DNA of 49,700 nt from Bacillota bacterium. Its GTDB lineage: Bacteria > Bacillota > Clostridia > Acetivibrionales > DUMC01. How positions within the stretch are numbered: the stretch's first letter is position 1; every line of letters starts with the position of its first letter. Both the position numbers and the translations under genes were made by a program. The notes under the pieces are model-generated. The model saw only the letters and a program-made list of their open reading frames with translations, did no database searches and was not told where the DNA came from. This document shows, one piece after another, positions 25,587-45,592 of this stretch. The stretch lies in contig JABUEW010000014.1 in assembly GCA_013314855.1 (NCBI GenBank), positions 1 through 49,700 of the forward strand, written 5' to 3'.

Positions 25587-27266
25587 TTAGAATAAGCCAG
25601 AAATCCTTCCTGAAGCATCAACATCAATTTTTTCTGCGGCAGGAACTTTCGGCAAGCCCGGCATTGTCATAATCTCGCCTGTTAAGGCTACTATGAACCC
25701 AGCTCCTGCCGAAACTTTAACATTTCTTACGGAAACTTTGTAATTCTTTGGCCATCCCAGTTTTTTGGGGTCGTCCGAAAGTGAATATTGAGTCTTGGCC
25801 ATACAGACAGGAAGTCTTCCAAAACCATTTTCTTCTAATTTCTCAATTTCTTTAAGAGCTGCAGGTAAAAAATCAACTCCATCTCCACCATAAATTTCCC
25901 TTACTATTGTTTCAATTTTCTCCTTAATAGGCATATCCAATTGATAAATAAAATTAAAGTTCGATTTGCCTTCATCAATCAACCTTATAACCTCCTGTGC
26001 CAGCTCTACACCCCCTTCGCCGCCTTTTGCCCAAACTTCGGACAGTACAACATTAACACCGTATTCTCTGCATTTCTCTTTGACAAAGCTCAATTCAGCT
26101 TCAGTATCTGTCGGGAAACGGTTCAAGGCAACCACTGCCGGCAAACCGAATTTTACCGTTACATTTTCTATATGTTTAAGCAAGTTTGGAATACCTTTCT
26201 CAAGATAACATAGATTCTCTACTCCCCATTCATTTTTCGAAGCACCGCCATGGTGTTTGAGGGCTCTTACAGTTGCAACAATAACAACGGCTGAAGGTTT
26301 TAATCCTCCTACCCTGCATTTTATATCCACGAATTTTTCTGCTCCAAGGTCAGCACCGAAACCAGCCTCCGTCACAACGTAATCTGCAAGTTTCAAAGCT
26401 GTTTGTGTTGCCATTATGCTGTTACAGCCATGGGCAATATTGGCAAAAGGCCCTCCATGCACAAAGGCAGGAGTATGCTCCAGGGTCTGGACCAGGTTAG
26501 GTTTTAAAGCATCCTTTAATAATGCAGCCATAGCACCTTCTGCCTTTAATTGTCCTGCAGTAACAGGCTTGTCGTCCCTTGTATATCCTACAACAATATT
26601 TCTCAAGTTTTCCTTCAAATTTTCTATGCTCCTGGAAAGACACAAAATAGCCATTACTTCGGAAGCTACCGTAATGTCAAATCCATCCTCCCTGGGCACT
26701 CCATTTGTCCTTCCGTTTAGACCATCCACAATAAACCTGAGCTGCCTGTCATTCATGTCAATACATCTCTTCCAGGTTATTTTCCGGGTATCCAGCCCCA
26801 ATTCATTTCCTTGGTAAATATGGTTATCTATCATTGCTGCCAATAAATTGTTTGCAGCACCTATTGCATGTATATCTCCGGTAAAATGCAAGTTTATATC
26901 TTCCATAGGTACAACCTGGGCATATCCTCCACCGGCTGCACCTCCTTTAACGCCAAAAACAGGTCCTAAGGAAGGTTCCCTTAAAGCTATCATTGTTTTC
27001 TTTCCCAATTTGCTTAATGCATCTCCCAAACCTACTGAAGTAGTTGTTTTACCTTCGCCTGCAGGAGTAGGAGTTATGGCAGTTACAAGAATCAACTTTC
27101 CGTCTTCCCTGTCCTTCAATTTTTCCAGGATATTGTAATTAACCTTTGCTTTGTATTTGCCGTATAACTCAATATACTCAATGTCAATACCTATCTTTTC
27201 CGCAATTTCTTCAATGGGCATAAGCTCTGTACTTTGAGCTATTTCAATGTCACTTTTATATTCCAT
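25587..27266 (-). CDS. fhs: Formate-tetrahydrofolate ligase
   Basis: A 559-residue formyl-THF synthetase, full length for the family. It activates formate with ATP to 10-formyl-THF, the first ATP-requiring step of the methyl branch. [20 protein letters not shown] (the P-loop) is near residues 66-85, [19 protein letters not shown] near 108, [16 protein letters not shown] near 270, and the C-terminal [19 protein letters not shown] is conserved. AGGAGGAG precedes the ATG. It lies between the formate channel gene and fchA. Confidence 0.99.
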
Positions 27267-27383: not shown

Positions 27384-28265
27384 CTAAATTGCCGGTCCTA
27401 TGTTGTCCCCAGTCTTGCTTATCTTCTTTCCCTTTCCTTCATAAAGATATATAAACCAGTAGGCAATACCAACGAATAATGCTCCTCCCACTATATTTCC
27501 TAGGGTTACGGGGATAAGGTTTTTGGTAAACATGCCTCCCCACGTTAATGAATCAAGCTTTTCAGGAGTTACACCAATTTCAATGGCCGCCTTTATCCAT
27601 GTTTCATTTGTCTTTGCCAGCAATCCGGCAGGTATATAGTACATGTTTGCAATGCTATGCTCAAATCCGGAAGTTACAAAAAGCCATATAGGGAAAAATA
27701 TTGCCAGGATTTTACTTGCAATATCCTTTGCCGCCGCAGCCATCCAGACGGCTAAACATACCAGCCAGTTACACATAATACCCATAAAAAATGCATTTTT
27801 AAAAGAAAGCCCGGTTTTATAGACTGCAGTTTTAATTGTAAAAGCACCTAATAATCCATTGGAAAAATCAAGTTGCCCTGATTGATATATGAAAAATGCA
27901 ACAATAATTGACCCAATAAAGTTTCCAAAATATACAACAGTCCAATTTTTAAGCAATCCTTTCCACGATGCTTTTTTGCAGGCACATGCAATTACAATAA
28001 GATTGTTCCCGGTAAATAACTCTGCTCCTGCAATAATTACCATTATTAGTCCTGTAGTGAATATTGCACCTGCCAGGGCCTTCGCAAGGCCAAAGGAATT
28101 TACAGTATGAATTGCAACATTGGAACCCTCGGCTGCAAAAGCAATAAAAGCACCTGCCATTATGCCTAAAAAAAGCATTTTATAAGCAGGAAGGCTTACT
28201 TTTTTACAACCTGTTTCAATGAATGCCCTGGATATTTCCGCAGGGCTTAAAAACGATTTTTCCAT
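27384..28265 (-). CDS. Formate/nitrite transporter family channel (FocA/FdhC-like)
   Basis: A 293-residue membrane protein with about six hydrophobic segments. It contains FNT-family motifs such as AGAFIAFAAEGSNVAI, GAELFTGNNLIVIACACKK and WTVVYFGNFIGSI, plus the C-terminal SGFEHSIANMYYIPAGL, which carries the conserved pore histidine region. The family moves formate, nitrite or hydrosulfide; the position directly upstream of fhs argues for formate (import or efflux). AAGGAGATGG precedes the ATG. It lies 25 bp after the FlxA-like gene. Confidence 0.93.
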   Translation of the reverse strand: MEKSFLSPAEISRAFIETGCKKVSLPAYKMLFLGIMAGAFIAFAAEGSNVAIHTVNSFGLAKALAGAIFTTGLIMVIIAGAELFTGNNLIVIACACKKASWKGLLKNWTVVYFGNFIGSIIVAFFIYQSGQLDFSNGLLGAFTIKTAVYKTGLSFKNAFFMGIMCNWLVCLAVWMAAAAKDIASKILAIFFPIWLFVTSGFEHSIANMYYIPAGLLAKTNETWIKAAIEIGVTPEKLDSLTWGGMFTKNLIPVTLGNIVGGALFVGIAYWFIYLYEGKGKKISKTGDNIGPAI

Positions 28266-28290: not shown

Positions 28291-29127
28291 CTAATACTCC
28301 TGCGGCATTTCGGCCAGTTCTTCCATACAAAATACTGGACCATCAACACATACATATTTATGGCCTATATTGCACTTTCCACATTTTCCCACCCCACATG
28401 TCATCCTCATTTCAAGGGTTGTATATATTTTGTTTTTCGGTATACCCAGTTCCACAAGTTTAGCCGATACAAATTTTATCATTATAGGCGGGCCGCATGT
28501 AACAGCATAAGTATTATTAAAATCAATATCCATTTCCCCGACTATGTTGTGTGGAAAACCCACCTTGCCGTCCCATCCCTGTTCCGGCCTGTCTATTGTT
28601 AATACAATTTCCGTATCTTTGCTCTTTGACCATTCACCAAAATCTCTCTTATATATGAAATCCCCTGTACTCCTCGCTGCTAAAAGCATCTGGACTTTTT
28701 TATATTTGTCCCTGTTCTCACGGTGGAGGATATAGGCAATTAAAGGCCGAAGGGGTGCAAGACCTAATCCCCCCGCAATTATTAAAATGTTACTGTTTTC
28801 CATCAAACCAAGTGGAAAGGTATTGCCCAGAGGACCTCTTATCCAGACAGTATCTCCCGATTTCAGATTATGTATTGCTTCAGTTACAACTCCCACTCTT
28901 TTTATGCTGACCTCAAAGAAGTCTTTATCCAAAGGAGACGAAGCAAATCCGAAAGGTGCTTCTCCAACGCCCGGCACTGAAAACTCAAAAAATTGTCCCG
29001 GCATAAATTCCATCTTTTCATTACCATCAGCTAATTTGAGCCTAAAAGTTTTTATGTCTATATCGGATGACGTTTCCTGGATAACATTCATTATTTCTGC
29101 CTTAACTGGTAAATACAGGTTACTCAC
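28291..29127 (-). CDS. FlxA/AsrB-like FAD/NAD(P)-binding oxidoreductase subunit
   Basis: A 278-residue ferredoxin-NADP reductase-type flavoprotein. The flavin domain contains MPGQFFEFSVPGVGEAPFGF. The NAD domain contains IIAGGLGLAPLRPLIAY. The C-terminus carries a four-cysteine motif for a [2Fe-2S] cluster: CGVGKCGKC then CVDGPVFC. This matches the NAD(P)H-handling subunit of sulfite-reductase-like AsrB, PyrK and the FlxA subunit of FlxABCD-HdrABC complexes. It overlaps the end of the FlxB-like gene by 8 nt. Its likely job is to exchange electrons with NAD(H) (inference). Confidence 0.9.
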   Translation of the reverse strand: MSNLYLPVKAEIMNVIQETSSDIDIKTFRLKLADGNEKMEFMPGQFFEFSVPGVGEAPFGFASSPLDKDFFEVSIKRVGVVTEAIHNLKSGDTVWIRGPLGNTFPLGLMENSNILIIAGGLGLAPLRPLIAYILHRENRDKYKKVQMLLAARSTGDFIYKRDFGEWSKSKDTEIVLTIDRPEQGWDGKVGFPHNIVGEMDIDFNNTYAVTCGPPIMIKFVSAKLVELGIPKNKIYTTLEMRMTCGVGKCGKCNIGHKYVCVDGPVFCMEELAEMPQEY

Positions 29128-30148
29128 TTTTCAATACCCCCATTATTTCATGCACTACACTTTTAATATTCATTCCTGCAGGGCAGCTTCTTATGCATCT
29201 TCCGCATCCGGTGCAGGCAATGTAGCCAAAGTTTTGCTTTACATAGATGTATTTGTGCAATATTCTTTGACGGTACCTTTCCTTTTTTGAAGGCCTGGGG
29301 TTATGCCCTGAAGCATGCAGAGTAAACTTTGGGTACATACAGCTGTCCCAACACCTGTACCTTACAGCTTTACCATCCTCTAAAACGTCTTTAAAATCAA
29401 AACAGTGGCAGGTAGGGCATATATAGGTACATGTACCGCACCCCATGCACTTTTCCGCAATTTTGCCCCAGTCTATTTTATTAAATAATGTGTTTTCATC
29501 GGCTTCAATTATTAATTGAGCTTTTTGAGATTCAGCCTCAGGCTTAGACTTAGGTATATCCATGACCGCATCTGCAACAAGGCCCTTTGATGCAAATTTA
29601 TCTAAAACATAGTCTCCGGTATCTGTAAAAGAATAAAATTCATAGTTTTTACCATATCCATCAGGTTTTTCAATAAATATGTCGCAGTCTTTGGAAAAGT
29701 TTTTATCTACTCCTCTTTCATCGCAAAAACATCCTGGCTTCTTACTTCGGCATCCGGTTCCGACTAAAATAATGTTTTCACGGCGTTTAATAACCTTTTC
29801 GTCTTTATATTTTCCTTCCGAGAAAACAGCGGTTAAGACTTTCAATCCCTCCAAATCACATGGTTTGACGCCAATTATAACCGTTTTATCCTCAACTTCT
29901 TCTTCAACTAAGTTACATCCGTTATTAAAGACCATCAATTTTTCCAGCTGGGGAAATAAAAATTCCTTGGGTGATTTATAGGGCAGTTCATCATTGTCAA
30001 TAGCTTTAATAATATCATCCCCAATATCAGTTATTTTCTGGAATTCCAATAACCCGTTTCTTTTTGCAGGTGCTACCACACTATAATCCTTTACCAATAC
30101 TCCAATTGCTTCTTTAATCTTATTTTTTGGTATTGCAGCACATCTCAC
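29120..30148 (-). CDS. FlxB/AsrA-like 4Fe-4S dicluster protein
   Basis: An iron-sulfur protein of about 342 residues with an N-terminal AsrA-type domain (VVIGVKPCDLEGLKVL, GCRSKKPGCFCDERG). Two cysteine clusters follow, CMGCGTCTYICPTCHCFDF and CTGCGRCIRSCPAGMN, giving two predicted [4Fe-4S] centres. It would relay electrons between the FlxA flavin subunit and the rest of the complex. The frame is open to 30184, but that start would overlap flxC by 65 nt. GTG at 30148 after GGGGGTGAG is the more plausible start; exact initiation is uncertain. Confidence 0.88.
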   Translation of the reverse strand: MRCAAIPKNKIKEAIGVLVKDYSVVAPAKRNGLLEFQKITDIGDDIIKAIDNDELPYKSPKEFLFPQLEKLMVFNNGCNLVEEEVEDKTVIIGVKPCDLEGLKVLTAVFSEGKYKDEKVIKRRENIILVGTGCRSKKPGCFCDERGVDKNFSKDCDIFIEKPDGYGKNYEFYSFTDTGDYVLDKFASKGLVADAVMDIPKSKPEAESQKAQLIIEADENTLFNKIDWGKIAEKCMGCGTCTYICPTCHCFDFKDVLEDGKAVRYRCWDSCMYPKFTLHASGHNPRPSKKERYRQRILHKYIYVKQNFGYIACTGCGRCIRSCPAGMNIKSVVHEIMGVLKSE

Positions 30149-31058
30149 CCTTCTCACCCCCAAGAAATCCAATTTCCCGGTCATCTTTATTAAATGCAGC
30201 TAAAGCAGGGGTTTCACCGGGATCCATCCCTGCCCTATATCCATAAACATTCCTACAGAAATCAGTTATTTCTTTTATCAGGTAACGTATTTTTACTCCT
30301 GAAGGGCAAGCCTTTTCACAGGCACCGCATTCTACACATCTTCCGGCCAGGTGCATTGCCCTTCCTAAATGAAATACCATTTTTGCTCCTGTTTCCAAAT
30401 CAGTAGGAAGCCAATTGGGCATTGAGCGTTCAATAAAACATACAGGACAGTAGCAGCCATAACATGCCTGTCTACAGGAAAAACACAATATGCACTTTTT
30501 TAACTCGTTCCGGAATTTTTCGAGCTTTTCTTTTTGTATGTCCCCACTTTCAGCTTCACCATACGCTCCATTATCTTCTGCAGCCCCTGTATAAGGAACA
30601 ATCTCTGAATCAGGCTTTGCATTATATTTTTGCTCAGCTACTTCTCCATTGCTTTTTATAAGAATATCAAATAACGGAGGAATATGTACTGTACACTCAT
30701 CACACCCCGGTGATAAAGAACCATCATGCTTTTTCATACCCTTGCATTCCATTCCTATTATATAAATATTATCTCTGGCTACCTGGTTTTCAACAATGTA
30801 CATAACTATTGCCCTGGCGTCGCAGGGTTTAGCAACTATTCCCACTTTTCCCTGCTTCTCCAGGAGATATTTTGCAAGATTAGGGTTACAATAATCATCC
30901 CATTTTAATTTATCTATTTCATCCGGTTTTCTTACAAAAAACGGTATAGCACTGTTTTCCAGATCACCATCAGTATATGCCAGTATTAAACCAACCTTTT
31001 CTTCACTCAGCAATCTTTTGCATACATCCGTCAATTGTTTCCTTTGATTATTATCCAT
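30120..31058 (-). CDS. FlxC-like 4Fe-4S protein with FrhB-type N-terminal domain
   Basis: A 312-residue protein. The N-terminal half (IPFFVRKPDEIDKLKWDD, GIVAKPCDARAIVMYIVE, YIIGMECKGM) resembles the coenzyme F420 hydrogenase/dehydrogenase beta domain. The C-terminal half has a cysteine-rich CILCFSCRQACYGCYCPVC segment and the classical CVECGACEKACPSGVK. At least two [4Fe-4S] clusters are predicted. It begins directly after the mvhD-like gene (ATG right after its TAA) and overlaps the FlxB-like gene. The role as an electron-wire subunit is inferred from the gene order. Confidence 0.87.
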   Translation of the reverse strand: MDNNQRKQLTDVCKRLLSEEKVGLILAYTDGDLENSAIPFFVRKPDEIDKLKWDDYCNPNLAKYLLEKQGKVGIVAKPCDARAIVMYIVENQVARDNIYIIGMECKGMKKHDGSLSPGCDECTVHIPPLFDILIKSNGEVAEQKYNAKPDSEIVPYTGAAEDNGAYGEAESGDIQKEKLEKFRNELKKCILCFSCRQACYGCYCPVCFIERSMPNWLPTDLETGAKMVFHLGRAMHLAGRCVECGACEKACPSGVKIRYLIKEITDFCRNVYGYRAGMDPGETPALAAFNKDDREIGFLGGEKGEMCCNTKK

Positions 31059-31484
31059 TTACTTCACTCCCGTCAAATGGTTAGGGCCCAGTTTTCTGAC
31101 TCTTTCCGTCACTTCTTTCACAACTTCCGCAAACCTGCCCCCTTCTGAAGCAGATATCCATGTAAAGTGCACCCTATCGGGGTTTATTCCTGCAGTTGTA
31201 ATAAGCTTTTTAAGTACTGTAAAGCGTCTCCTGGCATACATGTTTCCAGACAAGTAATGGCAATCTCCCGGGTGACACCCCGATACCATAACGCCATCAG
31301 CCCCCTCTGCCAGGGCTTTAATAATAAACAGCGGGTTTAAGCGGCCTGAACAAGGCACCCTAATAATTCTTATATTGGGCGGATATTGAAGCCTGCTGGT
31401 CCCAGCCAGGTCTGCCCCGGCATAGCTGCACCAGTTGCATAAAAAGGCAATAATCTTCGGTTCCCATCCTGTATTGTCCGCCAT
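31059..31484 (-). CDS. MvhD/FlxD-type hydrogenase iron-sulfur (delta) subunit
   Basis: A 141-residue MvhD-family protein. The cysteines of the [2Fe-2S] site are visible in IIAFLCNWCSYAGADLAG, RVPCSGRLNP and VSGCHPGDCHYLSGN. In methanogens and Moorella-type complexes MvhD connects a hydrogenase or flavin subunit to HdrA, the bifurcating flavoprotein. AGGAGGGC precedes the ATG; it begins 1 nt after the HdrA stop and directly abuts flxC, so stoichiometric co-translation is likely. Confidence 0.93.
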   Translation of the reverse strand: MADNTGWEPKIIAFLCNWCSYAGADLAGTSRLQYPPNIRIIRVPCSGRLNPLFIIKALAEGADGVMVSGCHPGDCHYLSGNMYARRRFTVLKKLITTAGINPDRVHFTWISASEGGRFAEVVKEVTERVRKLGPNHLTGVK

Positions 31485-31485
31485 G

Positions 31486-34400
31486 TTACGCCCTCCTTAA
31501 AAGATATTCAATTTCACTTACAACCTGCCTGTCAGTGAAGCCGTTTATATCTATGGCACCACACCTGCATACTGCCGAACATGTACCGCAACCCTTGCAA
31601 AGGGCGGCGTTTACCACGGCTTTTCTTATTGTTCCATTTCTCTTTTTTATTTCCTGTACACTTATAGCTTTATACGCACAGACTTTTTCACAGGTACCAC
31701 AGGCCGTACAAAGCTCTTCTGAAACCTGGGCTATTGTACCTTCCGCTTCCAGGAAGTCCTTTGATATTACCGTTGCTGCCCTTGCTGCTGCAGCTTTCCC
31801 TTGTGTAATACTTTCCTTTAAATTCTTAGGACTGTGGGCCAGTCCGCAAAGGTAAACACCATCAGTTGCAAAATCAACAGGCCTCAATTTCGCATGTGCT
31901 TCAAGGAAGAAACCTTCCTGATTTAAGGGAACCTTTAGAAGCTGGGCAAGTCTCCTGTTTTCATCTATTTGCGGTACGATTGCACTGGCCAGGACAATCA
32001 AATCAGCATTCATAACAATATAGTCCTGAAATAATGCATCATAAACTTTTATTTTTAACCCTTCATTTTCATCCCGGTAAACTTCCGGCTTTTTATCAGT
32101 CTCATATCGGATAAATTGGACTCCTTGCTTCCTTGCCTGCTTGTAGTTTATTTCATTCATTCCGTAAGCTCTTATATCCCTATACAAAATCGTGACATTC
32201 ATATCACTATTTATTTCCTTAAGCACAAGAGCATTTTTTATTGCCTGACTGCAGCATACCCTGCTGCAATACGCTCTCTCATCATCTCTTGAACCAACGC
32301 ATTGTATCATTACCACGTTTTTTATAGATTTCATAGATCCAATACTGTCCATAGAACTATCCATAGAGCTAATAGTATCCTTTTTCAAAATCTCTTCAAG
32401 TTCAAGTTGGGTAATAACTCTTTTGTCTTTCCCGTATAAATACTCTTCAGAGCGGTATTCTTTTGCTCCGGTAGCAACAATAACAACACCGTGATCTATC
32501 TTTTTGTCTTCTCCATTGGTTGAAAGTATAGTAGAATATTTTCCAACATACCCATCTATACTTTTTATCTCAGAATTTAAAAATACTTCAATTAATTTAT
32601 TGTTTAAAACCTCATTTATATACTTCCTGGTATAGTTGCCTACAAGCCTTCCCGATGGCGTTACATTGAGTCTTGCAGCATTTCCGCCCAATTCATGGGT
32701 TTTCTCTACCAGATATACCTTGTATCCCATTTCTGCTATTTTTAGCGCAGCAGCTATGCCAGCCATTCCTCCGCCAATAACAAGCGCAGACTTATTAACT
32801 TCAATTCTTTGACGGGTAAGTTGTCTGGCAAAGGTAACTTTGGCTACAGCCATCCTGACCAAGTCTTTTGACTTTTCCGTGGCTTCCCTATACCTGTCCA
32901 TATGAACCCATGAGCACTGGTCACGGATATTTGCCATTGAAAAAAGGTAGGGGTTTAAACCTGTTTTCCTGAGTACTCCCTGGAACAGGGGTTCATGGGT
33001 CCTTGGAGTACAGGAAGCTACTACAACCCTATTAAGTCTGTATTCCTTTATCCTGTCCGCAATAGTTTTTTGTGCATCTACAGAACATGTATAAAGATTA
33101 TCCTCCGCATACTCTACAAAGGGTAAAGTTTTCGCATACTCTACCACCGCCTTTACGTCAACGAATCCTCCAATATTTATACCGCAGTGGCATACAAATA
33201 CGCCAATTCTAATTGGTTCTTTTGAAATGTCCCTTTCAGGGACTTTAATCTCTTCTTTAAAATACAAAGTAAAATCTTCCTCGAAATTTGTTTTACTTGC
33301 CACAGCAATACTGGCTGCTTCGCCCGCGGCAGCGCTTGCCTCTACAACAGTTTCAGGGATATCCTTTGGTCCTGCAGAAGCACCGCAGGCCAATATACCT
33401 TCCTTAGATGTTCTGGGAGGCTGCATTTCATTAACCCATATAAAGCCGTATTTGTCGGTTTTTACTTCTGTCTTCTTAAGCAAGGATTTAATGTCTTTGC
33501 CTGCTTTAAGCCCTACCGACAATACTACCATATCATACTCTTCTGAAGCAGCATTGCCATCTTCATCACAATAATTTACAGCAAGCCTTCCAGTATCATC
33601 ATTTTTAATAACTCCTGAAACCCTGCTCCTGATAAACCCTACACCATATTTGTTTTTGGCAGAATCAATATACTTATCGAAATCTTTTCCATATGCCCTC
33701 ATATCCATGTAAAAGATATTCACTTGTTTTACCGAAGGAAGGTGCTCTCTTGTAATAATAGCCTCTTTTACAGCATACATACAACAAACGGCAGAGCAAT
33801 AATCCCCTCCGCATTTGGCGTCTCTTGACCCTACACACTGGATAAATGCTACCTTTTCAGGGGCCCTTCCATCTGACGGCCTCTGTACATGGCCGCTGAA
33901 TGGACCGGATGCCGACAAAATCCTTTCATATTCCATGCTGGTTACTACATCCGGATACCTTCCGTACCCAAATTCCGGAGGTATTTCATAAGTCGGGTCA
34001 TACCCGTTGGCCATTATGACAGCACTTACAGGAACTTCAATTATTTCATCCGTCTGTCCATGGCATATGGCATTTGCCTGACATACAGCCTCACATGCCT
34101 TACACTCGCTACAAACAGAACAGTCTGCACATCGTAATGCTTCTTTTTTGGCATTTTCTTCAGAAAGGCCTAATTCAACCTCTTTAAAAGTTGTAATTCT
34201 TTCTTCAAGCCCAATAGTAGGAATATTTATCCGTGGAGCAGGTTTAAGACTATCCAAATTTATCTCTTCAATAGGGGTCTTTGGCAAAAGAATAGGTCCT
34301 ACTGGTAATTCTAAGCCTTCCAAATAATTATATATACTTCTGGCTGCCTTGTTTCCGGCTGCTATTGCATCAATTACGGTAGCAGGCCCGGTTAATGCGT

Positions 34401-35982
34401 CTCCGCCGGCAAATACGTCTGCAATGTTAGTCCTCATGGTCTCAGGGTTGCAAATAATCTGTCCTTTATTATCAAAGCAAGGCCCTGCAGCCTCGCCTAT
34501 AAAATCAGTATCAACTCTTTGCCCTATTGCAGTAATTACCGTATCGCATTCAATAACATATTCGGATCCCGGTATTGGTTCAGGCCTTCTGCGTCCGCTT
34601 TTGTCAGGTTTCCCCCGTTTATTCTTTATGCATTTAAGGCCCTTAAGAGTGCCAGCTTCTGAAAGGGCTTCAAGAGGTGATGTAAGGAATTCAAACTTTA
34701 CTCCTTCCTCTTTAGCATGCTGAATTTCCCATATGTTGGCAGGCATTTCGTTTTCTGTCCTTCTATAAACCACTGTCACCTCAGAACCTAAACGTATTGC
34801 TGAACGGGCAGCGTCCATAGCTACATTTCCACCGCCCACAACCAGCACTTTCTTCCCTATATTGGTTTTTTGGCCAAGATTCAATTTCCTTAAGAATCCA
34901 ATGCCGGATATTATACCGGGCAATTCCTCTCCCGGTATTCCAAGTTTAATATCCTTATGGGCACCTATGGCAAGGAAAAACGCCTTAAACCCTTTTTTTC
35001 TCAAATCATCCAGCGTCAAATTCTTTCCTATAGGTGTATTACAATGTATCTCAACACCCATATCCCGAATAATTTGGATTTCACGCCTTAAAACCTCTTT
35101 ATCAAGCCTGTAATCAGGAATTCCTACCCTAAGCATTCCCCCTGGTTCTTCCAATGCTTCGAATATTGATACCTTGTAACCCATAAGGGCTAATTGATAG
35201 GCACAGTTAAGCCCTGCAGGTCCTGAACCTATTATTGCTACTTTCGTATCCTTCAAACCGGAATTTATTTTTACTTGAGGTTTTATTCCCTGTGATATTT
35301 CATAATCTGCTATAAAACGCTTTAATGCGGCTATTGATACGGGTGAGTCAACGTATTGCCTGCTACAGGCACTCTCACAGGGATGGAAACAGACTCTTCC
35401 TAAAACACCCGCAAAGGGCGTTGCTTTCCTTACCAGTTCCAGAGCCTCTTTGTACCTTCCCTGGCCTATAAGGGCTACATACCCGTGAGCGTCAATATGC
35501 GCAGGGCAATTATATTTACATGGAGATGTTCCTTTCTTATCTATAGCTACTTTATTAGGTACCGCCTGGGCAAAGGGTTTGTATATAGCATGTCTTTTGC
35601 CTATGCCCATATCGAACTCGCTTTTGGCTTCAATTGGGCACTTTAGGGTACATTCACCGCAACCTGTACATTTTTCCTCATCTATAAACCTGGCCTTCTT
35701 TTTTATTACTGCAGTAAAGTCCGGTGCTTCTCCTTTTATTTCTAAAACTTCGCTCCATGTAAAGGTTTTAATCAAAGGATGGTTAAAACATGAGGTAACT
35801 TTAGGAGCAAGAATACATGCAGAACAATCATTGGTGGGAAAAGTCTTGTCAAGCTGTGCCATTCTTCCTCCAATGCTGGGTGTCTTCTCTACTATGAACA
35901 CCGGAATTCCCATCTCCGCAAGGTCAAGCGAAGCCTGTATTCCTGCTATTCCTCCTCCTATTACAAGTACGGGTTTTTTCAT
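31486..35982 (-). CDS. Giant HdrA flavoprotein with an inserted GltD-like NAD(P)H oxidoreductase module
   Basis: A 1498-residue fusion. Residues 1-145 start an HdrA-like module (VLVIGGGIAGIQASLDLAE, NDCSACILAPKV, CTGCGECTLKCP). Residues about 150-560 are a GltD/NfnB-like unit with its own CKYNCPAHID and CFHPCESAC clusters and two Rossmann loops (IIGSGPAGLNCAY near 247, VVGGGNVAMDAARSA near 377). HdrA sequence then resumes at a cysteine-rich CADCSVCSECKACEAVC (near 617) to about 915. A complete second HdrA follows: GVFVCHCGINIGG (926), SALVIGGGMAGIAAA (1064), ferredoxin motifs CTACGTCEKVC (1424) and CKGCGTCSAVC (1462). Bound FADs and many [4Fe-4S] clusters are predicted. GGGAGG precedes the ATG. 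It is the likely electron-bifurcating core of the cluster (inference). Confidence 0.92.
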   Translation of the reverse strand: MKKPVLVIGGGIAGIQASLDLAEMGIPVFIVEKTPSIGGRMAQLDKTFPTNDCSACILAPKVTSCFNHPLIKTFTWSEVLEIKGEAPDFTAVIKKKARFIDEEKCTGCGECTLKCPIEAKSEFDMGIGKRHAIYKPFAQAVPNKVAIDKKGTSPCKYNCPAHIDAHGYVALIGQGRYKEALELVRKATPFAGVLGRVCFHPCESACSRQYVDSPVSIAALKRFIADYEISQGIKPQVKINSGLKDTKVAIIGSGPAGLNCAYQLALMGYKVSIFEALEEPGGMLRVGIPDYRLDKEVLRREIQIIRDMGVEIHCNTPIGKNLTLDDLRKKGFKAFFLAIGAHKDIKLGIPGEELPGIISGIGFLRKLNLGQKTNIGKKVLVVGGGNVAMDAARSAIRLGSEVTVVYRRTENEMPANIWEIQHAKEEGVKFEFLTSPLEALSEAGTLKGLKCIKNKRGKPDKSGRRRPEPIPGSEYVIECDTVITAIGQRVDTDFIGEAAGPCFDNKGQIICNPETMRTNIADVFAGGDALTGPATVIDAIAAGNKAARSIYNYLEGLELPVGPILLPKTPIEEINLDSLKPAPRINIPTIGLEERITTFKEVELGLSEENAKKEALRCADCSVCSECKACEAVCQANAICHGQTDEIIEVPVSAVIMANGYDPTYEIPPEFGYGRYPDVVTSMEYERILSASGPFSGHVQRPSDGRAPEKVAFIQCVGSRDAKCGGDYCSAVCCMYAVKEAIITREHLPSVKQVNIFYMDMRAYGKDFDKYIDSAKNKYGVGFIRSRVSGVIKNDDTGRLAVNYCDEDGNAASEEYDMVVLSVGLKAGKDIKSLLKKTEVKTDKYGFIWVNEMQPPRTSKEGILACGASAGPKDIPETVVEASAAAGEAASIAVASKTNFEEDFTLYFKEEIKVPERDISKEPIRIGVFVCHCGINIGGFVDVKAVVEYAKTLPFVEYAEDNLYTCSVDAQKTIADRIKEYRLNRVVVASCTPRTHEPLFQGVLRKTGLNPYLFSMANIRDQCSWVHMDRYREATEKSKDLVRMAVAKVTFARQLTRQRIEVNKSALVIGGGMAGIAAALKIAEMGYKVYLVEKTHELGGNAARLNVTPSGRLVGNYTRKYINEVLNNKLIEVFLNSEIKSIDGYVGKYSTILSTNGEDKKIDHGVVIVATGAKEYRSEEYLYGKDKRVITQLELEEILKKDTISSMDSSMDSIGSMKSIKNVVMIQCVGSRDDERAYCSRVCCSQAIKNALVLKEINSDMNVTILYRDIRAYGMNEINYKQARKQGVQFIRYETDKKPEVYRDENEGLKIKVYDALFQDYIVMNADLIVLASAIVPQIDENRRLAQLLKVPLNQEGFFLEAHAKLRPVDFATDGVYLCGLAHSPKNLKESITQGKAAAARAATVISKDFLEAEGTIAQVSEELCTACGTCEKVCAYKAISVQEIKKRNGTIRKAVVNAALCKGCGTCSAVCRCGAIDINGFTDRQVVSEIEYLLRRA

Positions 35983-35999
35983 AATATCCTCCCAACAAT

Positions 36000-36443
36000 T
36001 TACAAGTCTCCCTGATCATTTAATTCTTTCTGAGCATTAACCTTTATTGTTAATTCCTTAACCTTCGATATCCGTTGCTTTCTTAACTCTATATCTATGT
36101 TCTCAATTTCCTTTAACATGCTTTCCGGGGCATAACCTTCTTCGACCGCCATTTGTCTTAAAACTCTTACTATATCTGCAAATCTCACGTCCTGGGGACA
36201 ATGGGCGACGCAAATATGGCATTGGCTGCATTGCCATATTTCAGGGGAAGAGAGGACTTCCTCCTTCATTCCCAGCAAAATCATTCTCATAAAACGCCTG
36301 GGATTATATTCACTATATAAACTGCTTACCGGGCAACCCGCTGTACAGGTACCACATAAATAACAATTTTTTACCTTCTCTCCACCAGGCCTTGATGCCA
36401 CCTCATTTTTAAATTCAGTATCAAGCAATGTACATGCCAGCAT
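36000..36443 (-). CDS. HdrC-like 4Fe-4S protein
   Basis: About 147 residues with the HdrC double-cluster signature CYLCGTCTAGCPVSSLY and CSQCHICVAHCPQDVRF, i.e. two [4Fe-4S] clusters in a soluble protein. In HdrABC it links HdrA to HdrB. Here no HdrB follows: metF lies 34 bp upstream and the giant HdrA gene 17 bp downstream. The ATG at 36443 has GGAGTG 6 nt before it; the upstream TTG is less likely. It may pass electrons straight between HdrA and the MetVF reductase (inference). Confidence 0.92.
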   Translation of the reverse strand: MLACTLLDTEFKNEVASRPGGEKVKNCYLCGTCTAGCPVSSLYSEYNPRRFMRMILLGMKEEVLSSPEIWQCSQCHICVAHCPQDVRFADIVRVLRQMAVEEGYAPESMLKEIENIDIELRKQRISKVKELTIKVNAQKELNDQGDL

Positions 36444-36477
36444 ATTAATCACTCCGTTCAAAACGTTTCTTAAACAT

Positions 36478-37470
36478 TTACAATGCAGGTCTTGGCAGGA
36501 AACCTGCCTTTTCTACAATTACAGGCACTATGTTTTCCCAGCCTACCGCCATAATGTGGATACCCTTTACCCCTTCTATCTTCCTTATTTCATTAATTAA
36601 ATCCAGGGCAATCCTTACTCCCTCTTCCTCCTGGGATACTGCTTTTGCCATCCTTTCAACAAAAATGTCAGGCACATCCATTCCGGCAACCTTTTTTGTC
36701 ATCTCAATTGATTTTAATGATTTATTAACCAGGATACCTGCCAAAATATAAGCTTTATTATGGAGGCCTGCTTTCCTTACTCTTTCCATCCACCCGGCAA
36801 ACTTCTCTACATCGTATATAGCCTGGGTTTGAATGAACTGTGCCCCTGCTGCAATTTTTTTATGCAGCCTTATAAACTGGAGTTCTTCAGGATCCGCAAA
36901 AGGATTGGCGGTTGCACCTATAAAAAACTCAGCCGGTGTTTTAGTGCTCCTTCCGCACATAAAAACCTTTTCTTCCTTCATCATTCTTAAAGCATTTACC
37001 AGTTGAATTGAGTCAATGTCATAGACATTTTTTGATTGGGGATGATTACCGAAAGACTGGTGGTCCCCCGAGAGACATAAAACATTCCTAAGTCCAAGAG
37101 CATATGCGCCCAAAAGGTCACTCTGGATTGCAATCCTGTTCCTGTCACGGCATGTCATTTGGACTACAGCTTCTAATCCTTCCTGCTGTATCAAATAGGC
37201 CGCCGCAATACTGGACATTCTAACCATGGCTGTCTGGTTATCGGTGACATTTGCCGCATCAACCAGCCCTGCCATATCCCGGGCTTTCTTGCGTACAAAA
37301 TCCGCATCTGCACTCATTGGAGGGCCTATTTCAGCAGTTACGGAAAAATGGCCTGCCTTCAATACTTTCTGCAAATTGCTCTTCATATTTTTATCATGTA
37401 GATTTATATTTTCATTATCTTTATTACTAGTTATATTTACATTATCTATATTACTTGACTTTGAGCTCAA
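36478..37470 (-). CDS. metF: Methylene-tetrahydrofolate reductase MetF
   Basis: A TIM-barrel flavoenzyme reducing methylene-THF to methyl-THF. FSVTAEIGPPMSADADFV gives the catalytic glutamate region, DAANVTDNQTAMVRMSS and LCLSGDHQSFGNHPQSKNVY are the FAD-binding signatures, and FIQTQAIYDVEKF is the substrate-binding strand. The frame extends further upstream, but a TTG at 37470, 7 nt after AGGAGG and overlapping the metV stop by 4 nt, fits best. This leaves a 28-residue N/D/K-rich leader before the usual MKSNLQKVLKAG beginning (ATG at 37386 is the alternative). It partners with MetV. Confidence 0.93.
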   Translation of the reverse strand: MSSKSSNIDNVNITSNKDNENINLHDKNMKSNLQKVLKAGHFSVTAEIGPPMSADADFVRKKARDMAGLVDAANVTDNQTAMVRMSSIAAAYLIQQEGLEAVVQMTCRDRNRIAIQSDLLGAYALGLRNVLCLSGDHQSFGNHPQSKNVYDIDSIQLVNALRMMKEEKVFMCGRSTKTPAEFFIGATANPFADPEELQFIRLHKKIAAGAQFIQTQAIYDVEKFAGWMERVRKAGLHNKAYILAGILVNKSLKSIEMTKKVAGMDVPDIFVERMAKAVSQEEEGVRIALDLINEIRKIEGVKGIHIMAVGWENIVPVIVEKAGFLPRPAL

Positions 37471-38135
37471 AGCATAACCTCCTTTTTCTCCACTTTCCTG
37501 GGACCCCCATCCCTGCTGCTTCTCCAATCTTTAGGAGGAATTATCTCATATAAATTATCCAGTTTTCCAAGGACTTTAAGCCTGTCATATATCAATTGCC
37601 ATCCACAGTCAATGTCAGGATTGATTTCGCATTTTCCTCTTGATGAACCTCCACAAGGCCCATTAAAATTGCTCTTTGAGCATCTCGTCACAGGGCAAAT
37701 ACCACCTGTCTTTTCCAGTATACAATCGCCACAACCCTGACACATCTCAGTCCAAACTCCTACATCTCTTGTAACTCCCATAAACTTGGTATTGACACCT
37801 GGAAGTACAGGCTTATTCTTAAATTTTTCCACCATAAACTGTACCCCAGCTCCACAACCTAAAGATAGGATTGCTTCGCAATCTTCCAGTTGAAAAGCAA
37901 TATCTTCAAGAAATTCACTATCACATTGCCTTTTAGGTGTTACCACTTTTATTTCAATGTGCTTATTTTGCTCCATACTTTTAACTTTCAGCACAGAAGC
38001 CAACTTCAAGGCCTCCTTTTCCCCTCCTGCCATGCACACCGTAACACATGTGCCACAAGCAGCAATGGCAATTTTATTAAAACCTTCCAGGTACCTTATT
38101 ATTTCTTCTATAGGTTTTTGTTCGGCAACTATCAA
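37467..38135 (-). CDS. metV: MetV, iron-sulfur/zinc partner of methylene-THF reductase
   Basis: A 222-residue MetV-family (MTHFR C-terminal-like) protein. The N-terminal region has IAACGTCVTVCMAGG. Later cysteines in CQGCGDCILEKTGGICPVTR and CSKSNFNGPCGGSSRGKCE make up the metal site typical of acetogenic MetV, which forms a complex with MetF and supplies its electrons. A TTG start with AAGGTGG 7 nt upstream is used. Placement directly before metF and next to Hdr genes matches the Moorella-type MetVF-Hdr arrangement. Confidence 0.93.
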   Translation of the reverse strand: MIVAEQKPIEEIIRYLEGFNKIAIAACGTCVTVCMAGGEKEALKLASVLKVKSMEQNKHIEIKVVTPKRQCDSEFLEDIAFQLEDCEAILSLGCGAGVQFMVEKFKNKPVLPGVNTKFMGVTRDVGVWTEMCQGCGDCILEKTGGICPVTRCSKSNFNGPCGGSSRGKCEINPDIDCGWQLIYDRLKVLGKLDNLYEIIPPKDWRSSRDGGPRKVEKKEVML

Positions 38136-38197: not shown

Positions 38198-39778
38198 CTA
38201 TGTTACCGTACTCTTTGTCCTGTCATCAATTAACAATCTTATATGCTCTTCTGCAACATAAGGCATGGCATGGGAAACTTGTATATAATCTATCCTGTTT
38301 TCATCAAGTCCTAAATCCCTTAAAAGTTTCCTTGCCCTATCTACGTGAAGTTTCGACCTTTTGTTACCCTCAAAATGTTTACAGGCCTTATCCATACAGG
38401 TCATAACCAGCACTTTTTCAAAGTCTTTAAGTGAATCGAGAAGCATCTCAGTAGCTATTTTCCCTCCACAGGAAACAGGTACAATTTCTATTTTCTCTTG
38501 GAGTTTTTCCATGCGATCCAATATTTTTTTGACAGCTATTTCTCCTGAATTTTCGCAGCAAATTATTTTTAAAGACTTCCGTATTACACAACCGTTGAAA
38601 TTATCCGGATAGTCTGATTTTTTTGCGGTATCTAAAACATCTAAACTATTATCCTCTACAATGCTTATGGCATTAGCAGGGCAAACCGACTCACAAATTC
38701 CGCATCCGCAACATGCATTCTTTAAACTCTTCATTACCGAGTTTTCATAATCAGGATACATTGCCTGGTGGGGGCATGCCCTGTAACAGGTATAGCAGAA
38801 AGCACATTTTTCACTGTCTACCTGTGCATAATAAATGCTATATTGCGTAAGATTATGTTCTCTTTTCTTTATGTCTACATCTTTTTCTTTGGCTGTTTGT
38901 AAAAACGATAAATCTTCTTTAATTGATGATATTGTAAAATTAATACAATCTTCCAATTCTCCGTCTCCTCCGGGTAAGGATTTTGTGTTTATTAAATATA
39001 CGCCCTTGCGGCTTGTCAAGGTAGGATACAGAAAACTGTTTCTTCCGTTTGCAAAACCCTCTTCGTTTAGTTTTAACCTTAACATTTTATATATATTTTT
39101 CAATCCTTCTCCGGGGATCAAAGACCCCACCCACACCAGTAAACTTGTTTCAATAGTAATACTCCCTATTTCATGGATTGCTTTTATATAAAAAAGATTT
39201 TTTTCAATATCATAGTTTATGGAAATATTATCATATTTAACAAATGTGACGCCTAAACTTCTCGCATCCAAGTAAAGCCTTTCAAGGCTGCCTTCTGCCG
39301 GGCCTGCTGTCCTAATAAACTTAAGCAGACAAAACACCTTTCTTTTTTTCTTTGCAAACTCAATGGCCTTGATCAATACGGCATGAGTGTTGTATGCCTC
39401 GGATTCTTCAGGGTAATCCAAAAGAAAAACAATTGGGGCGTTTTTGTTACTTACACTGCTTATATAACTTATATTATTTATGTCATCCCGGCCTTCCAAT
39501 TGGTCCAGAGTTAATACAGGCAAATACTCTGTACCGGACTCTTCCGGCAACTCTTCAGGGAAAGCTGCAAAAACCGATTCCTCTGTAATAACAATATGAG
39601 TAGCGTTAATAGTGTTTCCTGTTTTCCCTCCTGTTATTATGGTGAAATTCCCTACTTCCCCTTCAGCCCTCTTTATATCATTAATGTCTTCAAGAATTAC
39701 TGGACTTAGGCCTTCTCTATTCAATCTTTCAGATAGCAATTCATTAATTCTGTTTTTACCGATAATTACAACACCCAT
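38198..39778 (-). CDS. Degenerate HdrA-like / ferredoxin / MvhD-domain fusion
   Basis: About 526 residues. The N-terminus resembles a Rossmann start, but its glycine loop is lost (GVVIIGKNRINELL in place of GxGxxG), so dinucleotide binding is doubtful. The middle region ends in a stretch aligning by eye with HdrA's C-terminal lobe (SRKGVYLINTKSLPGGDG). Two ferredoxin clusters follow (CAFCYTCYRACP near 328, CCGCGICESVCP near 355). A C-terminal MvhD-like domain has IICCENSGEIAV, VPVSCGGKIATEML and MTCMDKACKHFEGNKR. ATG at 39778 has GGAG 6 nt upstream. With the adjacent FAD protein it looks like a split HdrA-MvhD (inference). Confidence 0.8.
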   Translation of the reverse strand: MGVVIIGKNRINELLSERLNREGLSPVILEDINDIKRAEGEVGNFTIITGGKTGNTINATHIVITEESVFAAFPEELPEESGTEYLPVLTLDQLEGRDDINNISYISSVSNKNAPIVFLLDYPEESEAYNTHAVLIKAIEFAKKKRKVFCLLKFIRTAGPAEGSLERLYLDARSLGVTFVKYDNISINYDIEKNLFYIKAIHEIGSITIETSLLVWVGSLIPGEGLKNIYKMLRLKLNEEGFANGRNSFLYPTLTSRKGVYLINTKSLPGGDGELEDCINFTISSIKEDLSFLQTAKEKDVDIKKREHNLTQYSIYYAQVDSEKCAFCYTCYRACPHQAMYPDYENSVMKSLKNACCGCGICESVCPANAISIVEDNSLDVLDTAKKSDYPDNFNGCVIRKSLKIICCENSGEIAVKKILDRMEKLQEKIEIVPVSCGGKIATEMLLDSLKDFEKVLVMTCMDKACKHFEGNKRSKLHVDRARKLLRDLGLDENRIDYIQVSHAMPYVAEEHIRLLIDDRTKSTVT

Positions 39779-39840
39779 TTTAAACTCCACATCCCCCATG
39801 TCCAAATAACACTTCTTTATATCTTCCTATACCTGAATTC

Positions 39841-39900
39841 CCACTTCTCACACCTAACTCCTCACCTCTACCCTCTCACCTCTCACCTCTAACTTCTCGC
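39841..39900. repeat. Degenerate CTCACCTCTA-type repeat at a gene end
   Basis: A polypyrimidine run of loosely repeated units (CTCACCTCTA, CCTCTCACCTCT, ACTTCTCGCCTCT) covers the last codons and stop region of the HdrA-like FAD gene. A similar but shorter stretch with CTCTCAC and ATCTCACACTTCT lies at about 19960-19998. Confidence 0.6.
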
Positions 39901-40918
39901 CTCTAAAAGCCAACTCTTTTGCAACTGCCAGTGATTGGGCATAAACCTCTTCTATTCTTTTCGGACCGCCTGCACAGCCTGCAATATATATTCCCGTGGT
40001 TTCAGGCCTCACAACATATCTGAGAAATCCGTTTTCGTCCTGTTCCAGCCCACATATCTCTGCAATATGCCCGGCATCCTCTGCGGGATGTATTCCTTCA
40101 GAAAGAATAATAATATCATATTCTCTCTCAATCAGTTTAGAAAGTTTTGGATCTTCATAAACTATTTTTGCAGGTGTAATGCCCGGTATACCACTTTTTA
40201 TCTTTATCGGCCTGCACCCTATAAACTCAATTTTTTCATTTTTCAGTGATTCAAAATAGCCTCTCCCCTCAACCCACTGCAGATCCATGTAAAAGAAAGT
40301 TATTTCCGCTTCAGGGTAATACTGTCTTATTACTTTAGCTGCCCTGGTCGAATATCCACAGCAAACACGTGAACAGTACATGGCTTTTTCCTTTATATCT
40401 CTTGAACCAAAACATTGAATAAAGGCGATACTTTCCGGTTTTCCTGACAATAATCCACTAAATAATTCTTTTTTACCTCTATGTGAAATAATTTTCTCAA
40501 GTTGATATCCACTGATTATATTACTGTTGGAATTAAACTCAAGATTTGACCAAGATATTGAAGAAAAATTGTCGAAACCTATTGCAACAACAATTTTATC
40601 CGTTCTCTCAAGAATTCTGGTATTGTCTTTTACTTTGACAATTACTTTATAGTCTCCCTTTTTACCATCTATATCAATCAATCGTGAGTGTGTTAATATT
40701 TCTATTTTTTCATTATTCTTTATATTATCCCATAAATTCTTTACAAGGCACAGTCCACAATTATTACACGTATCTGTTGCTTTACAACCATAGTTTTTAA
40801 CTTTACCACCTATATCATCGGACTTTTCAATAATAGTAACTTCCATACCCCTGCTCGCAACTTCATTTGCTATCAAGCATCCTGCAAGTCCTCCACCTAT
40901 TACTACTATTCGGGCCAT
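39854..40918 (-). CDS. HdrA-like FAD-binding protein (split HdrA FAD half)
   Basis: A 354-residue flavoprotein. VVIGGGLAGCLIANEVASRG at the N-terminus binds FAD; TDTCNNCGLCLVKN near residue 50 is the HdrA-type cysteine segment; IAFIQCFGSRDIKEKAMYCS and RVCCGYSTRAAKVIRQYY are unmistakable HdrA signatures. It lacks HdrA's N-terminal CHCGxNI region and C-terminal ferredoxins, which the next gene may partly provide. The last dozen residues (KLEVRGERVEVRS) are encoded by a repeat, so the original C-terminus may have been replaced. It is first in the C1/Hdr cluster, with AGGTGAT before the ATG. Confidence 0.87.
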   Translation of the reverse strand: MARIVVIGGGLAGCLIANEVASRGMEVTIIEKSDDIGGKVKNYGCKATDTCNNCGLCLVKNLWDNIKNNEKIEILTHSRLIDIDGKKGDYKVIVKVKDNTRILERTDKIVVAIGFDNFSSISWSNLEFNSNSNIISGYQLEKIISHRGKKELFSGLLSGKPESIAFIQCFGSRDIKEKAMYCSRVCCGYSTRAAKVIRQYYPEAEITFFYMDLQWVEGRGYFESLKNEKIEFIGCRPIKIKSGIPGITPAKIVYEDPKLSKLIEREYDIIILSEGIHPAEDAGHIAEICGLEQDENGFLRYVVRPETTGIYIAGCAGGPKRIEEVYAQSLAVAKELAFRGEKLEVRGERVEVRS

Positions 40919-45527: not shown

Positions 45528-45592
45528 TGTATCAAACCCTTTCTAAAAAATATGGGAAATTTCAGTACAAATCATGTTGGTCATATTCCATA

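What the first reader, a model, noticed from the sequence alone, without database searches (positions are those of the whole stretch)
31486..35982. GltD-like NAD(P)H oxidoreductase inserted inside an HdrA module, followed by a second full HdrA
The insertion is not a simple end-to-end fusion. HdrA sequence runs to about residue 145 (CTGCGECTLKCP, then the segment around AIYKPFAQAVPNKVAIDK), a GltD/NfnB-like unit occupies about 150-560, and HdrA sequence resumes at a cysteine-rich ferredoxin-like segment near 617. A second HdrA with the CHCGINIGG start occupies 926-1498. The protein could thus hold several FADs and its own NAD(P)H site beside the FlxA NAD site, suggesting two pyridine nucleotide entry points (for example NADH and NADPH).
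Basis: partly seen in the sequence, partly recalled or inferred. Interest (0 to 1): 0.72.

Follow-up and report, generated by a model that had tools for sequence, protein, structure and literature searches.

The report
HdrA enzyme with built-in NADP port
An anaerobic bacterium carries a very large electron-splitting protein, of an already described but little studied type, that has a complete NADP-binding enzyme spliced into its middle and sits in a methyl-folate-making gene cluster, which makes it a good natural system for finding the unknown third partner of that kind of enzyme.

Summary
One HdrA thioredoxin-reductase module (residues 1-150 and about 623-897) is interrupted between the two halves of its inserted ferredoxin by a full GltD-type domain (about 151-622); residues 923-1498 are a second HdrA. 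Not an artefact: same fusion at 78% in a sister genome and near full length in 68 of 80 named loci. The architecture is published: HdrL (2009), HdrA of Moorella type IV methylene-THF reductase (2022), similar ANME-1 HdrAs (2022). New here: (1) the insert is the permuted StnC-type GltD with Lys221, not the Glu of bifurcating NfnB, so probably a non-bifurcating nucleotide port; the bifurcation pair of module 1 is invariant (101 of 101). (2) Its 2'-phosphate motif is YRR (NADP type), but CLE (NAD type) in nine Moorella-like proteins; Moorella's HdrA oxidises NADH. (3) This lineage adds Flx-like genes beside MvhD and lacks HdrB (no CCG domain in 6 of 6 genomes). I read it as a type IV methylene-THF reductase with an NADP(H) port in HdrA and a separate Flx, probably NADH, port. 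FlxA's nucleotide and the reaction direction are undecided; the Flx/motif association is phylogenetically confounded.

The parts
31486..35982 (-). HdrA(GltD insert)-HdrA fusion (HdrL type), 1498 aa
35533..35982 (-). Module 1, HdrA thioredoxin-reductase part with FAD motif and first ferredoxin half (residues 1-150)
   Evidence: query 5-150 = 5odc_A 146-291
35800..35835 (-). TNDCSACILAPK (50-61); C56 equals HdrA Cys197, the ligand given in trans to the N-terminal cluster; in-frame TGA (selenocysteine) here in 45 of 80 named relatives
35638..35670 (-). First [4Fe-4S] motif of the HdrA inserted ferredoxin, C105 C108 C111 C115
34117..35532 (-). Inserted permuted GltD (StnC-type) unit, residues 151-622; it shares the cysteine-rich stretch 617-634 with the resumed HdrA ferredoxin
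35320..35322 (-). Lys221, position of the fourth ligand of the proximal [4Fe-4S] cluster (K170 in StnC, Glu in NfnB)
35212..35229 (-). GSGPAG, FAD motif of the insert (252-257)
34759..34767 (-). YRR (406-408), 2'-phosphate (NADP) motif; CLE in Moorella-like proteins
34399..34413 (-). FAGGD (524-528), second FAD motif of the insert
34081..34134 (-). RCADCSVCSECKACEAVC (617-634): permuted GltD CxxC plus second half of the HdrA ferredoxin
33292..34065 (-). Module 1 HdrA resumed (640-897) with bifurcation pair E686/K739
31489..33216 (-). Module 2 HdrA (923-1498): N-terminal cluster domain (C931 C933 C966 C991), TrxR part without inserted ferredoxin or Cys197 motif
31552..31734 (-). C-terminal two-cluster ferredoxin of module 2 (1417-1477)
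31059..31484 (-). MvhD/FlpD (FlxD-like) adapter, 141 aa
   Evidence: PF02662 2.2e-57
30120..31058 (-). Fe-S protein, FlxC-like (name by position and analogy; only weak Fer4 matches)
   Evidence: conserved neighbour
29120..30184 (-). AsrA/HydB-like Fe-S protein, FlxB-like (name by analogy)
   Evidence: NF040833 1.5e-39, below its cut-off
28291..29127 (-). FAD/NAD(P) reductase, AsrB/HydG-like, FlxA-like (name by analogy)
36000..36461 (-). HdrC-like, two [4Fe-4S]; no HdrB found in the genome
36478..37527 (-). MetF methylene-THF reductase
   Evidence: PF02219 2.9e-42
37467..38135 (-). MetV-like partner (PF12225)
   Evidence: 8.4e-39
38198..39805 (-). HdrA C-terminal part + ferredoxin + FlpD, 535 aa
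39854..40918 (-). Short HdrA-like flavoprotein, 354 aa; aligns full length with 6tjr
25587..27266 (-). Formate-THF ligase (Fhs), same methyl branch
   Evidence: NF010030 946 bits, cut-off 652
27384..28265 (-). Formate/nitrite transporter

Best explanation
The protein is the HdrA (HdrL-type) hub of an Hdr-type (type IV) methylene-THF reductase. Its two HdrA modules form one chain that replaces the HdrA homodimer: module 1 gives Cys197 (C56), module 2 gives the N-terminal cluster domain and the C-terminal ferredoxin. The GltD unit sits at the place where methanogen HdrA passes low-potential electrons to ferredoxin, and acts there as a non-bifurcating NADP(H) port wired by its own [4Fe-4S] clusters to the HdrA ferredoxin. 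The FAD of module 1 (E686/K739) is the bifurcating or confurcating site. [quoted passage not shown] one branch goes through HdrC to MetVF and methylene-THF without HdrB, the other to or from NADP(H). Shown: architecture, motifs, operon, no HdrB found. Inferred: complex formation, cofactor use, electron order and direction.
For: Architecture and fold. The gene order short HdrA, HdrA-FlpD, MetV, MetF, HdrC, fusion, MvhD, FlxC, FlxB, FlxA recurs in six genomes, window included, as far as contig ends allow, and in most of the other Clostridia loci. The published Moorella HdrA has the same layout, 1487 aa and E696/K750/E1204/K1246. P0001 reads YRR. Non-bifurcating insert: position 221 is Lys in 78, His in 19, Arg in 1, Glu in 0 of 98; StnC with Lys does not bifurcate at this FAD; in the same genome the NfnB-like protein has Glu and two NuoF-GltD fusions have Lys. 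Bifurcating site in module 1: E686 and K739 in 101 of 101; in module 2 E in 50 and K in 66 of 99. HdrB: PF02754 in 0 of 6 operon-bearing Clostridia genomes, against 15 and 22 matches in G433 and G416.
Against: FlxA's nearest solved relative is sulfhydrogenase 1 gamma (201 bits), then PyrK (81 bits), so NADH there is not shown. [quoted passage not shown] in Sporomusa, whose HdrA lacks the GltD unit, co-reduction of NAD(P)+ or ferredoxin was not seen and NADH was not used. Eight of 26 Flx-less methylene-THF reductase contexts also carry YRR, so YRR does not need Flx. A tree-based test of the Flx/motif link has four independent pairs and is not significant. In L047/G107 the insert's NADP and FAD motifs are lost although the operon is intact. 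No acetyl-CoA synthase (PF03598) was found in this genome or in 3 of the 5 other operon-bearing Clostridia genomes, so the pathway around it is unclear.
Confidence: 0.55

Rival explanations
1. Same complex, but NADPH is the donor: NADPH enters at the insert, the HdrA FAD splits electrons to methylene-THF and to NAD+ (through Flx) or ferredoxin; or the whole runs backwards and oxidises methyl-THF.
For: The insert is NADP type; StnC feeds NADPH electrons inward through the same Lys-type cluster; the genome has an Nfn-like pair, two NuoF-GltD fusions (one beside an [FeFe] hydrogenase of group A6) and two Rnf-Nqr family genes.
Against: In the characterised relative NADH is the reductant that was found. 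Sequence gives no direction.
Confidence: 0.3
2. The insert is mainly a structural or electron-relay element; the NAD(P) site is a leftover and all pyridine nucleotide traffic goes through FlxA.
For: L047/G107 keeps all Fe-S cysteines of the insert but has GGEY, YEG and no FAGGD in an open reading frame; three further members (L075, L080, L088) have altered nucleotide motifs.
Against: 97 of 100 rows with a residue there keep D528; 69 of 100 keep R407 and 70 of 100 R408, and 27 of 100 are switched as a block to L-E rather than decayed. P0001 has every motif.
Confidence: 0.12
3. The insert carries its own NfnB-like bifurcating flavin, giving two bifurcation sites in one chain, as suggested for ANME-1 HdrA9-11.
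For: Arg equivalent to TmNfnB R187 is kept (R292 in 99 of 100 with a residue); 44-45% identity to NfnB chains over about 405 aligned residues; FlxA is a distant relative of NfnA (4ylf_A, 75 bits); suggestion in PMC9012536.
Against: StnC also keeps this Arg and does not bifurcate there; the Glu ligand of NfnB is Lys here and Glu in 0 of 98; the layout is the permuted StnC one; StnC-type chains align over 474 residues at Z 50-51 against about 405 at Z 38-40 for NfnB.
Confidence: 0.08
4. Assembly artefact or chimeric contig.
For: None found.
Against: Independent genomes with the same junction.
Confidence: 0.01

Closest known systems
HdrA of the Moorella thermoacetica type IV methylene-THF reductase (HdrCBA-MvhD-MetVF), 1487 aa
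   Same: Domain order, length, GltD unit inside module 1, second HdrA without inserted ferredoxin, E/K pairs in both modules, MvhD and MetVF neighbours
   Different: Insert motif CLE (NAD type) in the nine Moorella-like loci against YRR here; HdrB present there, not found here; no Flx or short HdrA genes in those nine loci, apart from an HdrA-like gene upstream in L158
HdrL of Desulfobacterium autotrophicum HRM2 (heterodisulfide reductase/glutamate synthase fusion)
   Same: HdrA plus GltD-type fusion followed by MvhD
   Different: Selenocysteine in HdrL1 and HdrL3; HdrL1 and MvhD are followed by dsrABC; sequence not compared here
ANME-1 HdrA9/10/11
   Same: About 500 aa NfnB-like insertion in the HdrA ferredoxin domain
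   Different: No MetF in a cluster with HdrA in the ANME-1 genomes studied; sequences not fetched here
StnC of the Sporomusa ovata Stn transhydrogenase and NfnABC relatives (8oh5, 9bov)
   Same: GltD unit with Lys at the ligand position, C-terminal CxxC segment, NADP(H) port feeding a cluster chain
   Different: StnC joins it to a NuoG-like domain; here it is inside HdrA
FlxABCD-HdrABC of Desulfovibrio
   Same: Flx-like oxidoreductase genes next to HdrA and MvhD
   Different: Here with MetVF, without HdrB, with an HdrL-type HdrA; the Flx papers were not read (titles seen in reference lists); the comparison is from recall

Membership tests
HdrA, bifurcating type | TrxR-like FAD module with E356/K409 equivalents | tested here: met
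   E686/K739 and E1196/K1249 in P0001; module 1 pair in 101 of 101
HdrA, bifurcating type | N-terminal cluster domain, Cys197, inserted and C-terminal ferredoxins | tested here: met
   All present but shared out over the two modules
HdrL / type IV methylene-THF reductase HdrA | GltD unit interrupting the ferredoxin/TrxR part of the first HdrA, second HdrA following | tested here: met
Type IV (Hdr-type) methylene-THF reductase complex | MetV, MetF, HdrA, HdrC, MvhD in one cluster | tested here: met
Type IV (Hdr-type) methylene-THF reductase complex | HdrB | tested here: not met
   No CCG domain found in the genome (96.6% complete), nor in 5 further operon-bearing Clostridia genomes
NfnB (bifurcating) | Glu as fourth ligand of the proximal [4Fe-4S] cluster | tested here: not met
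   Lys221; Glu in 0 of 98 members
NfnB (bifurcating) | N-terminal RCLxC segment before the PCxxxCP segment | tested here: not met
   That segment lies after the domain at 582-621; score 64, 0 of 2000 shuffles as high; the N-side flank scores 22, 490 of 1000 shuffles as high
StnC-type GltD | Lys at the ligand position, C-terminal CxxC segment, NADP motif | tested here: met
StnC-type GltD | Second possible ligand C114 of StnC | tested here: not met
   Ala165 here; Ala, Val or Ile in 98 of 98; C114 is not strictly conserved among StnC homologues either
Flx module | FlxA-like FAD/NAD reductase, FlxB-, FlxC-like and MvhD/FlxD genes together | tested here: inconclusive
   Genes present and conserved together, but not compared with the Desulfovibrio Flx sequences; names by analogy
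Flx module | NADH specificity of FlxA | tested here: inconclusive
   Nearest solved: sulfhydrogenase gamma, then PyrK
Electron bifurcation | Coupled exergonic and endergonic electron transfer | not testable with these tools
   needs enzyme assays

The most novel reading that the evidence does not exclude
The GltD unit is an exchangeable pyridine-nucleotide cassette plugged into the ferredoxin exit of HdrA. In Moorella-like enzymes it is NAD type; in Clostridia that have a Flx module at MvhD it is NADP type and HdrB is dispensed with. The window would then encode a machine for three couples (NADH, NADP(H), methylene-THF) in which exergonic methylene-THF reduction drives NADP+ reduction by NADH, and Flx is the kind of partner missing from the long-unexplained type IV enzyme.
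Probability: 0.3. Interest if true: 0.72.

Novelty: new variant of a known kind. Interest (0 to 1): 0.5.

Why it matters
The third electron carrier of the type IV methylene-THF reductase is still unknown according to two 2026 papers (passages). Moorella's complex oxidises NADH and does not reduce ferredoxin; the position of the GltD unit, at the place where methanogen HdrA hands electrons to ferredoxin, gives a structural reason for both (inference). The variant here is a natural experiment: NADP type instead of NAD type in the insert, added Flx-like genes at MvhD and no HdrB. It turns the open question into simple assays (NADPH against NADH, with and without Flx).

Tried and rejected
Artefact: rejected by recurrence. 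NfnB-like bifurcating insert: disfavoured by Lys221, StnC likeness and permutation. Reading the architecture as new: rejected after the papers.

Flx/motif association: of 101 rows, 59 have at least 3.5 kb on both sides. Of these, with Flx: 20 YRR, 1 CLE, 1 degenerate; without: 17 YRR, 19 CLE, 1 other; a plain Fisher test on the YRR/CLE rows gives p 1.7e-4. This is not independent evidence: 20 of the 59 are regions that I chose from the 47 full-length places, nine of them Moorella-like on purpose, and the tree test has four independent pairs, none in the opposite direction, not significant. I keep it as a lead only. The tree is FastTree with midpoint root; the fewest changes between NAD and NADP type on it are nine, of which its starred branches force four for the NAD group.

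FlxA cofactor from sequence: undecided. HdrB in the genome: none found. Acetyl-CoA synthase in the genome: none found, so the word acetogen is not used for this organism. The Mock 2014 paper was not held; its results are cited through later papers. ANME-1 and D. autotrophicum sequences were not fetched. The 2'-phosphate rule (Arg pair NADP, acidic residue NAD) is general knowledge, recalled, checked here only against the Moorella case. QmoA/QmoB likeness of the two short HdrA genes is recalled, not tested. Fold matches to families not listed are not excluded. Module 2 was not modelled.

One search stopped with a script error after L099 (relatives with in-frame TGA); one search replaced it. In the listings some genes were hidden behind longer frames of the other strand; one search found MetV in G001 and G189 and MvhD and MetF in L153 and L155.

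Full report
What is in the sequence. The reverse-strand ORF 31486-35982 encodes 1498 residues. Matches to the solved methanogen HdrA 5odc_A show the cut: query 5-150 equals HdrA 146-291 and query 623-830 equals HdrA 292-500, so nothing of HdrA is missing there and about 470 residues sit between the two [4Fe-4S] motifs of its inserted ferredoxin. The inserted part matches GltD-type families (PRK12771 562 bits, above its cut-off of 516; Fer4_20; Pyr_redox_2). Residues 923-1498 are a second HdrA with the N-terminal cluster domain and the C-terminal ferredoxin but without the inserted ferredoxin. A model of residues 1-912 (pLDDT 87.6, pTM 0.84) aligns over 150-634 with StnC-type chains (9bov_A Z 51.2, rmsd 1.7, 474 residues; 8oh5_C Z 49.9) and over 2-897 with HdrA (8rvu_a Z 48.6, rmsd 1.7, 420 residues; 5odc_A Z 47.5, rmsd 2.5, 424 residues).

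Not an artefact, widespread, but patchy near home. G001, same genus, has it full length at 78%; G011 and G030 carry it cut by contig ends. In the class, 3 of 391 sampled genomes (G000 included) match across the whole first junction with a frame of that length; 113 others passed the threshold with other proteins or shorter stretches. In the order 4 of 58 have the fusion; in the order of G107 1 of 30. A scan of named genomes found 458 relatives, of which the best 80 were kept; 68 of these 80 span the query from residue 6 or before to 1483 or beyond, the other 12 are partial. By record title they are Clostridia, many Desulfobacterota, Peptococcaceae, a Chloroflexi, a WOR-3, two Thermoplasmatota and a Thermoguttaceae, among others. 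In the phylum of one Peptococcaceae MAG, at least 44 of 398 genomes (47 places by my count of the rows; two candidates per genome were scored) have it full length. In G416 the two halves also occur as neighbouring separate genes (978 and 589 residue frames).

Prior art. The architecture was named HdrL, a heterodisulfide reductase/glutamate synthase fusion, in Desulfobacterium autotrophicum (PMC2702500, passages read). PMC9430772 (Kremp and colleagues 2022; [quoted passage not shown] So the thing itself is known.

One chain as a broken-symmetry dimer. In P0001 the first module has the Cys197 motif (TNDCSACILAPK, C56) and no N-terminal domain; the second has the N-terminal domain with its cysteines (C931, C933, C966, C991) and no Cys197 motif. 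This is the complementarity reported for double HdrAs. In 45 of 80 named relatives C56 is an in-frame TGA, so selenocysteine probably stands at this very ligand. The bifurcation pair E/K is invariant in module 1 (101 of 101 rows) but not in module 2 (E 50, K 66 of 99). The bifurcating flavin is therefore probably the one in the module that carries the insert.

What kind of GltD. In free NfnB the RCLxC segment precedes the domain. In P0001 the corresponding segment follows it: the N-terminus of the genome's own NfnB-like protein aligns with residues 582-621 (score 64; 0 of 2000 shuffles as high, maximum 50), while the flank on the N side gives nothing (score 22, 490 of 1000 shuffles as high). 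StnC and relatives share this layout. The fourth ligand position of the proximal cluster is Glu in NfnB and Lys in StnC, whose FAD does not bifurcate (PMC10482914, passages read). P0001 has Lys221; of 98 members 78 have Lys, 19 His, 1 Arg and none Glu. As a control inside the genome, its NfnB-like protein (next to an NfnA-like one; families TIGR01316 and PRK06222) has Glu, and two NuoF-GltD fusions have Lys. The insert is therefore best read as a non-bifurcating nucleotide port, against the idea of two bifurcation sites. Against this: R292, the N5 arginine of NfnB, is kept, and FlxA is a distant NfnA relative.

NADP or NAD. P0001 reads VYRRTENEMPA, and the five solved relatives that were printed read YRR at the same place. 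Before looking I noted that Moorella-type proteins should differ, having seen CLE in L112 and in a Desulfobacterota group. Nine loci whose protein is exactly 1487 residues with E696, K750, E1204 and K1246, as printed for M. thermoacetica, and that lie in operons with HdrC, HdrB, MvhD, MetV and MetF, all read CLE at the same place. The Moorella HdrA oxidises NADH. Over 101 rows there are 69 YRR, 27 CLE, 4 other and 1 without data, with nine changes as the fewest on the tree. In methylene-THF reductase contexts with enough flank, Flx-bearing loci are 14 YRR, 0 CLE, 1 degenerate; Flx-less ones are 8 YRR, 18 CLE. The tree test is not significant, and my sampling of Moorella-like loci was deliberate, so this stays a lead.

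The surroundings. In six genomes, window included, the order is short HdrA, HdrA-FlpD, MetV, MetF, HdrC, fusion, MvhD, FlxC, FlxB, FlxA, then in two (G000, G107) the formate transporter, and Fhs, as far as contig ends allow. FolD and an FTCD_C-type cyclohydrolase gene lie next to Fhs in the window. HdrB is not just missing from the operon: the CCG domain was found in none of the six genomes, against 15 and 22 matches in G433 and G416. Acetyl-CoA synthase was found in G030, G189 and G433 but not in G000, G001, G011 and G107. Two Rnf-Nqr family genes are present.

How it probably works. Inference from these facts: Flx reduces MvhD, MvhD the C-terminal ferredoxin, and this the HdrA flavin of module 1. 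One electron branch goes through HdrC to MetVF. The other leaves through the inserted ferredoxin, but there the GltD unit replaces free ferredoxin as the terminus. That agrees with the report that the Moorella complex has NADH diaphorase activity and does not reduce ferredoxin (passages in PMC8578096). [quoted passage not shown] Direction and donor are open; NADPH as donor is the main rival. A sister protein (L047 = G107) has lost the NADP and FAD motifs of the insert but keeps its cysteines and the whole operon, one case in which the port was given up with Flx present.

Verdict. Observation confirmed. The protein is a member of a known kind; the operon is a new variant of it (Flx-like genes added, NADP-type insert, no HdrB found). 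I found no description of this combination in searches of the held library, which lacks most subscription journals; of their hits I read passages of ten papers and only listings of the rest.

Noticed in passing
window 41094-49114 (-): Complete Wadjet (type 3) defence gene set: JetD 47963-49114, JetA 46336-47979, JetB 45593-46336, JetC 41094-45527, directly upstream of the redox operon.
   Followed up: partly
L047 7208-11563 (= G107): Insert with decayed NADP and FAD motifs (GGEY, YEG, FAGGD lost) in an intact 1451-aa frame and intact operon.
   Followed up: partly
45 of 80 loci among L039-L118, e.g. L051 near 10043: In-frame TGA at the Cys197 position (e.g. TNDCAMUIISPK): probable selenocysteine at the trans ligand of the HdrA N-terminal cluster.
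   Followed up: partly
G000 whole genome: Methyl-branch genes of the Wood-Ljungdahl pathway but no acetyl-CoA synthase hit in a 96.6% complete genome; also none in G001, G011, G107.
   Followed up: partly
window 38198-40918 (-): Short HdrA-like flavoprotein plus HdrA-ferredoxin-FlpD protein conserved at the head of the operon; the first aligns with 6tjr; role unknown.
   Followed up: partly
19 of 98 members, e.g. L087, L096, L111: His instead of Lys at the proximal-cluster ligand position 221; 13 of the 19 also carry CLE.
   Followed up: no
G416:C54:46028-50451: HdrA(GltD) and second HdrA as separate adjacent genes, a possible unfused form.
   Followed up: no
L107 1730-6637 and downstream: Thermoplasmatota MAG with two HdrL-type fusions in one locus beside HdrC, HdrB, MvhD and Flx-like genes.
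   Followed up: no
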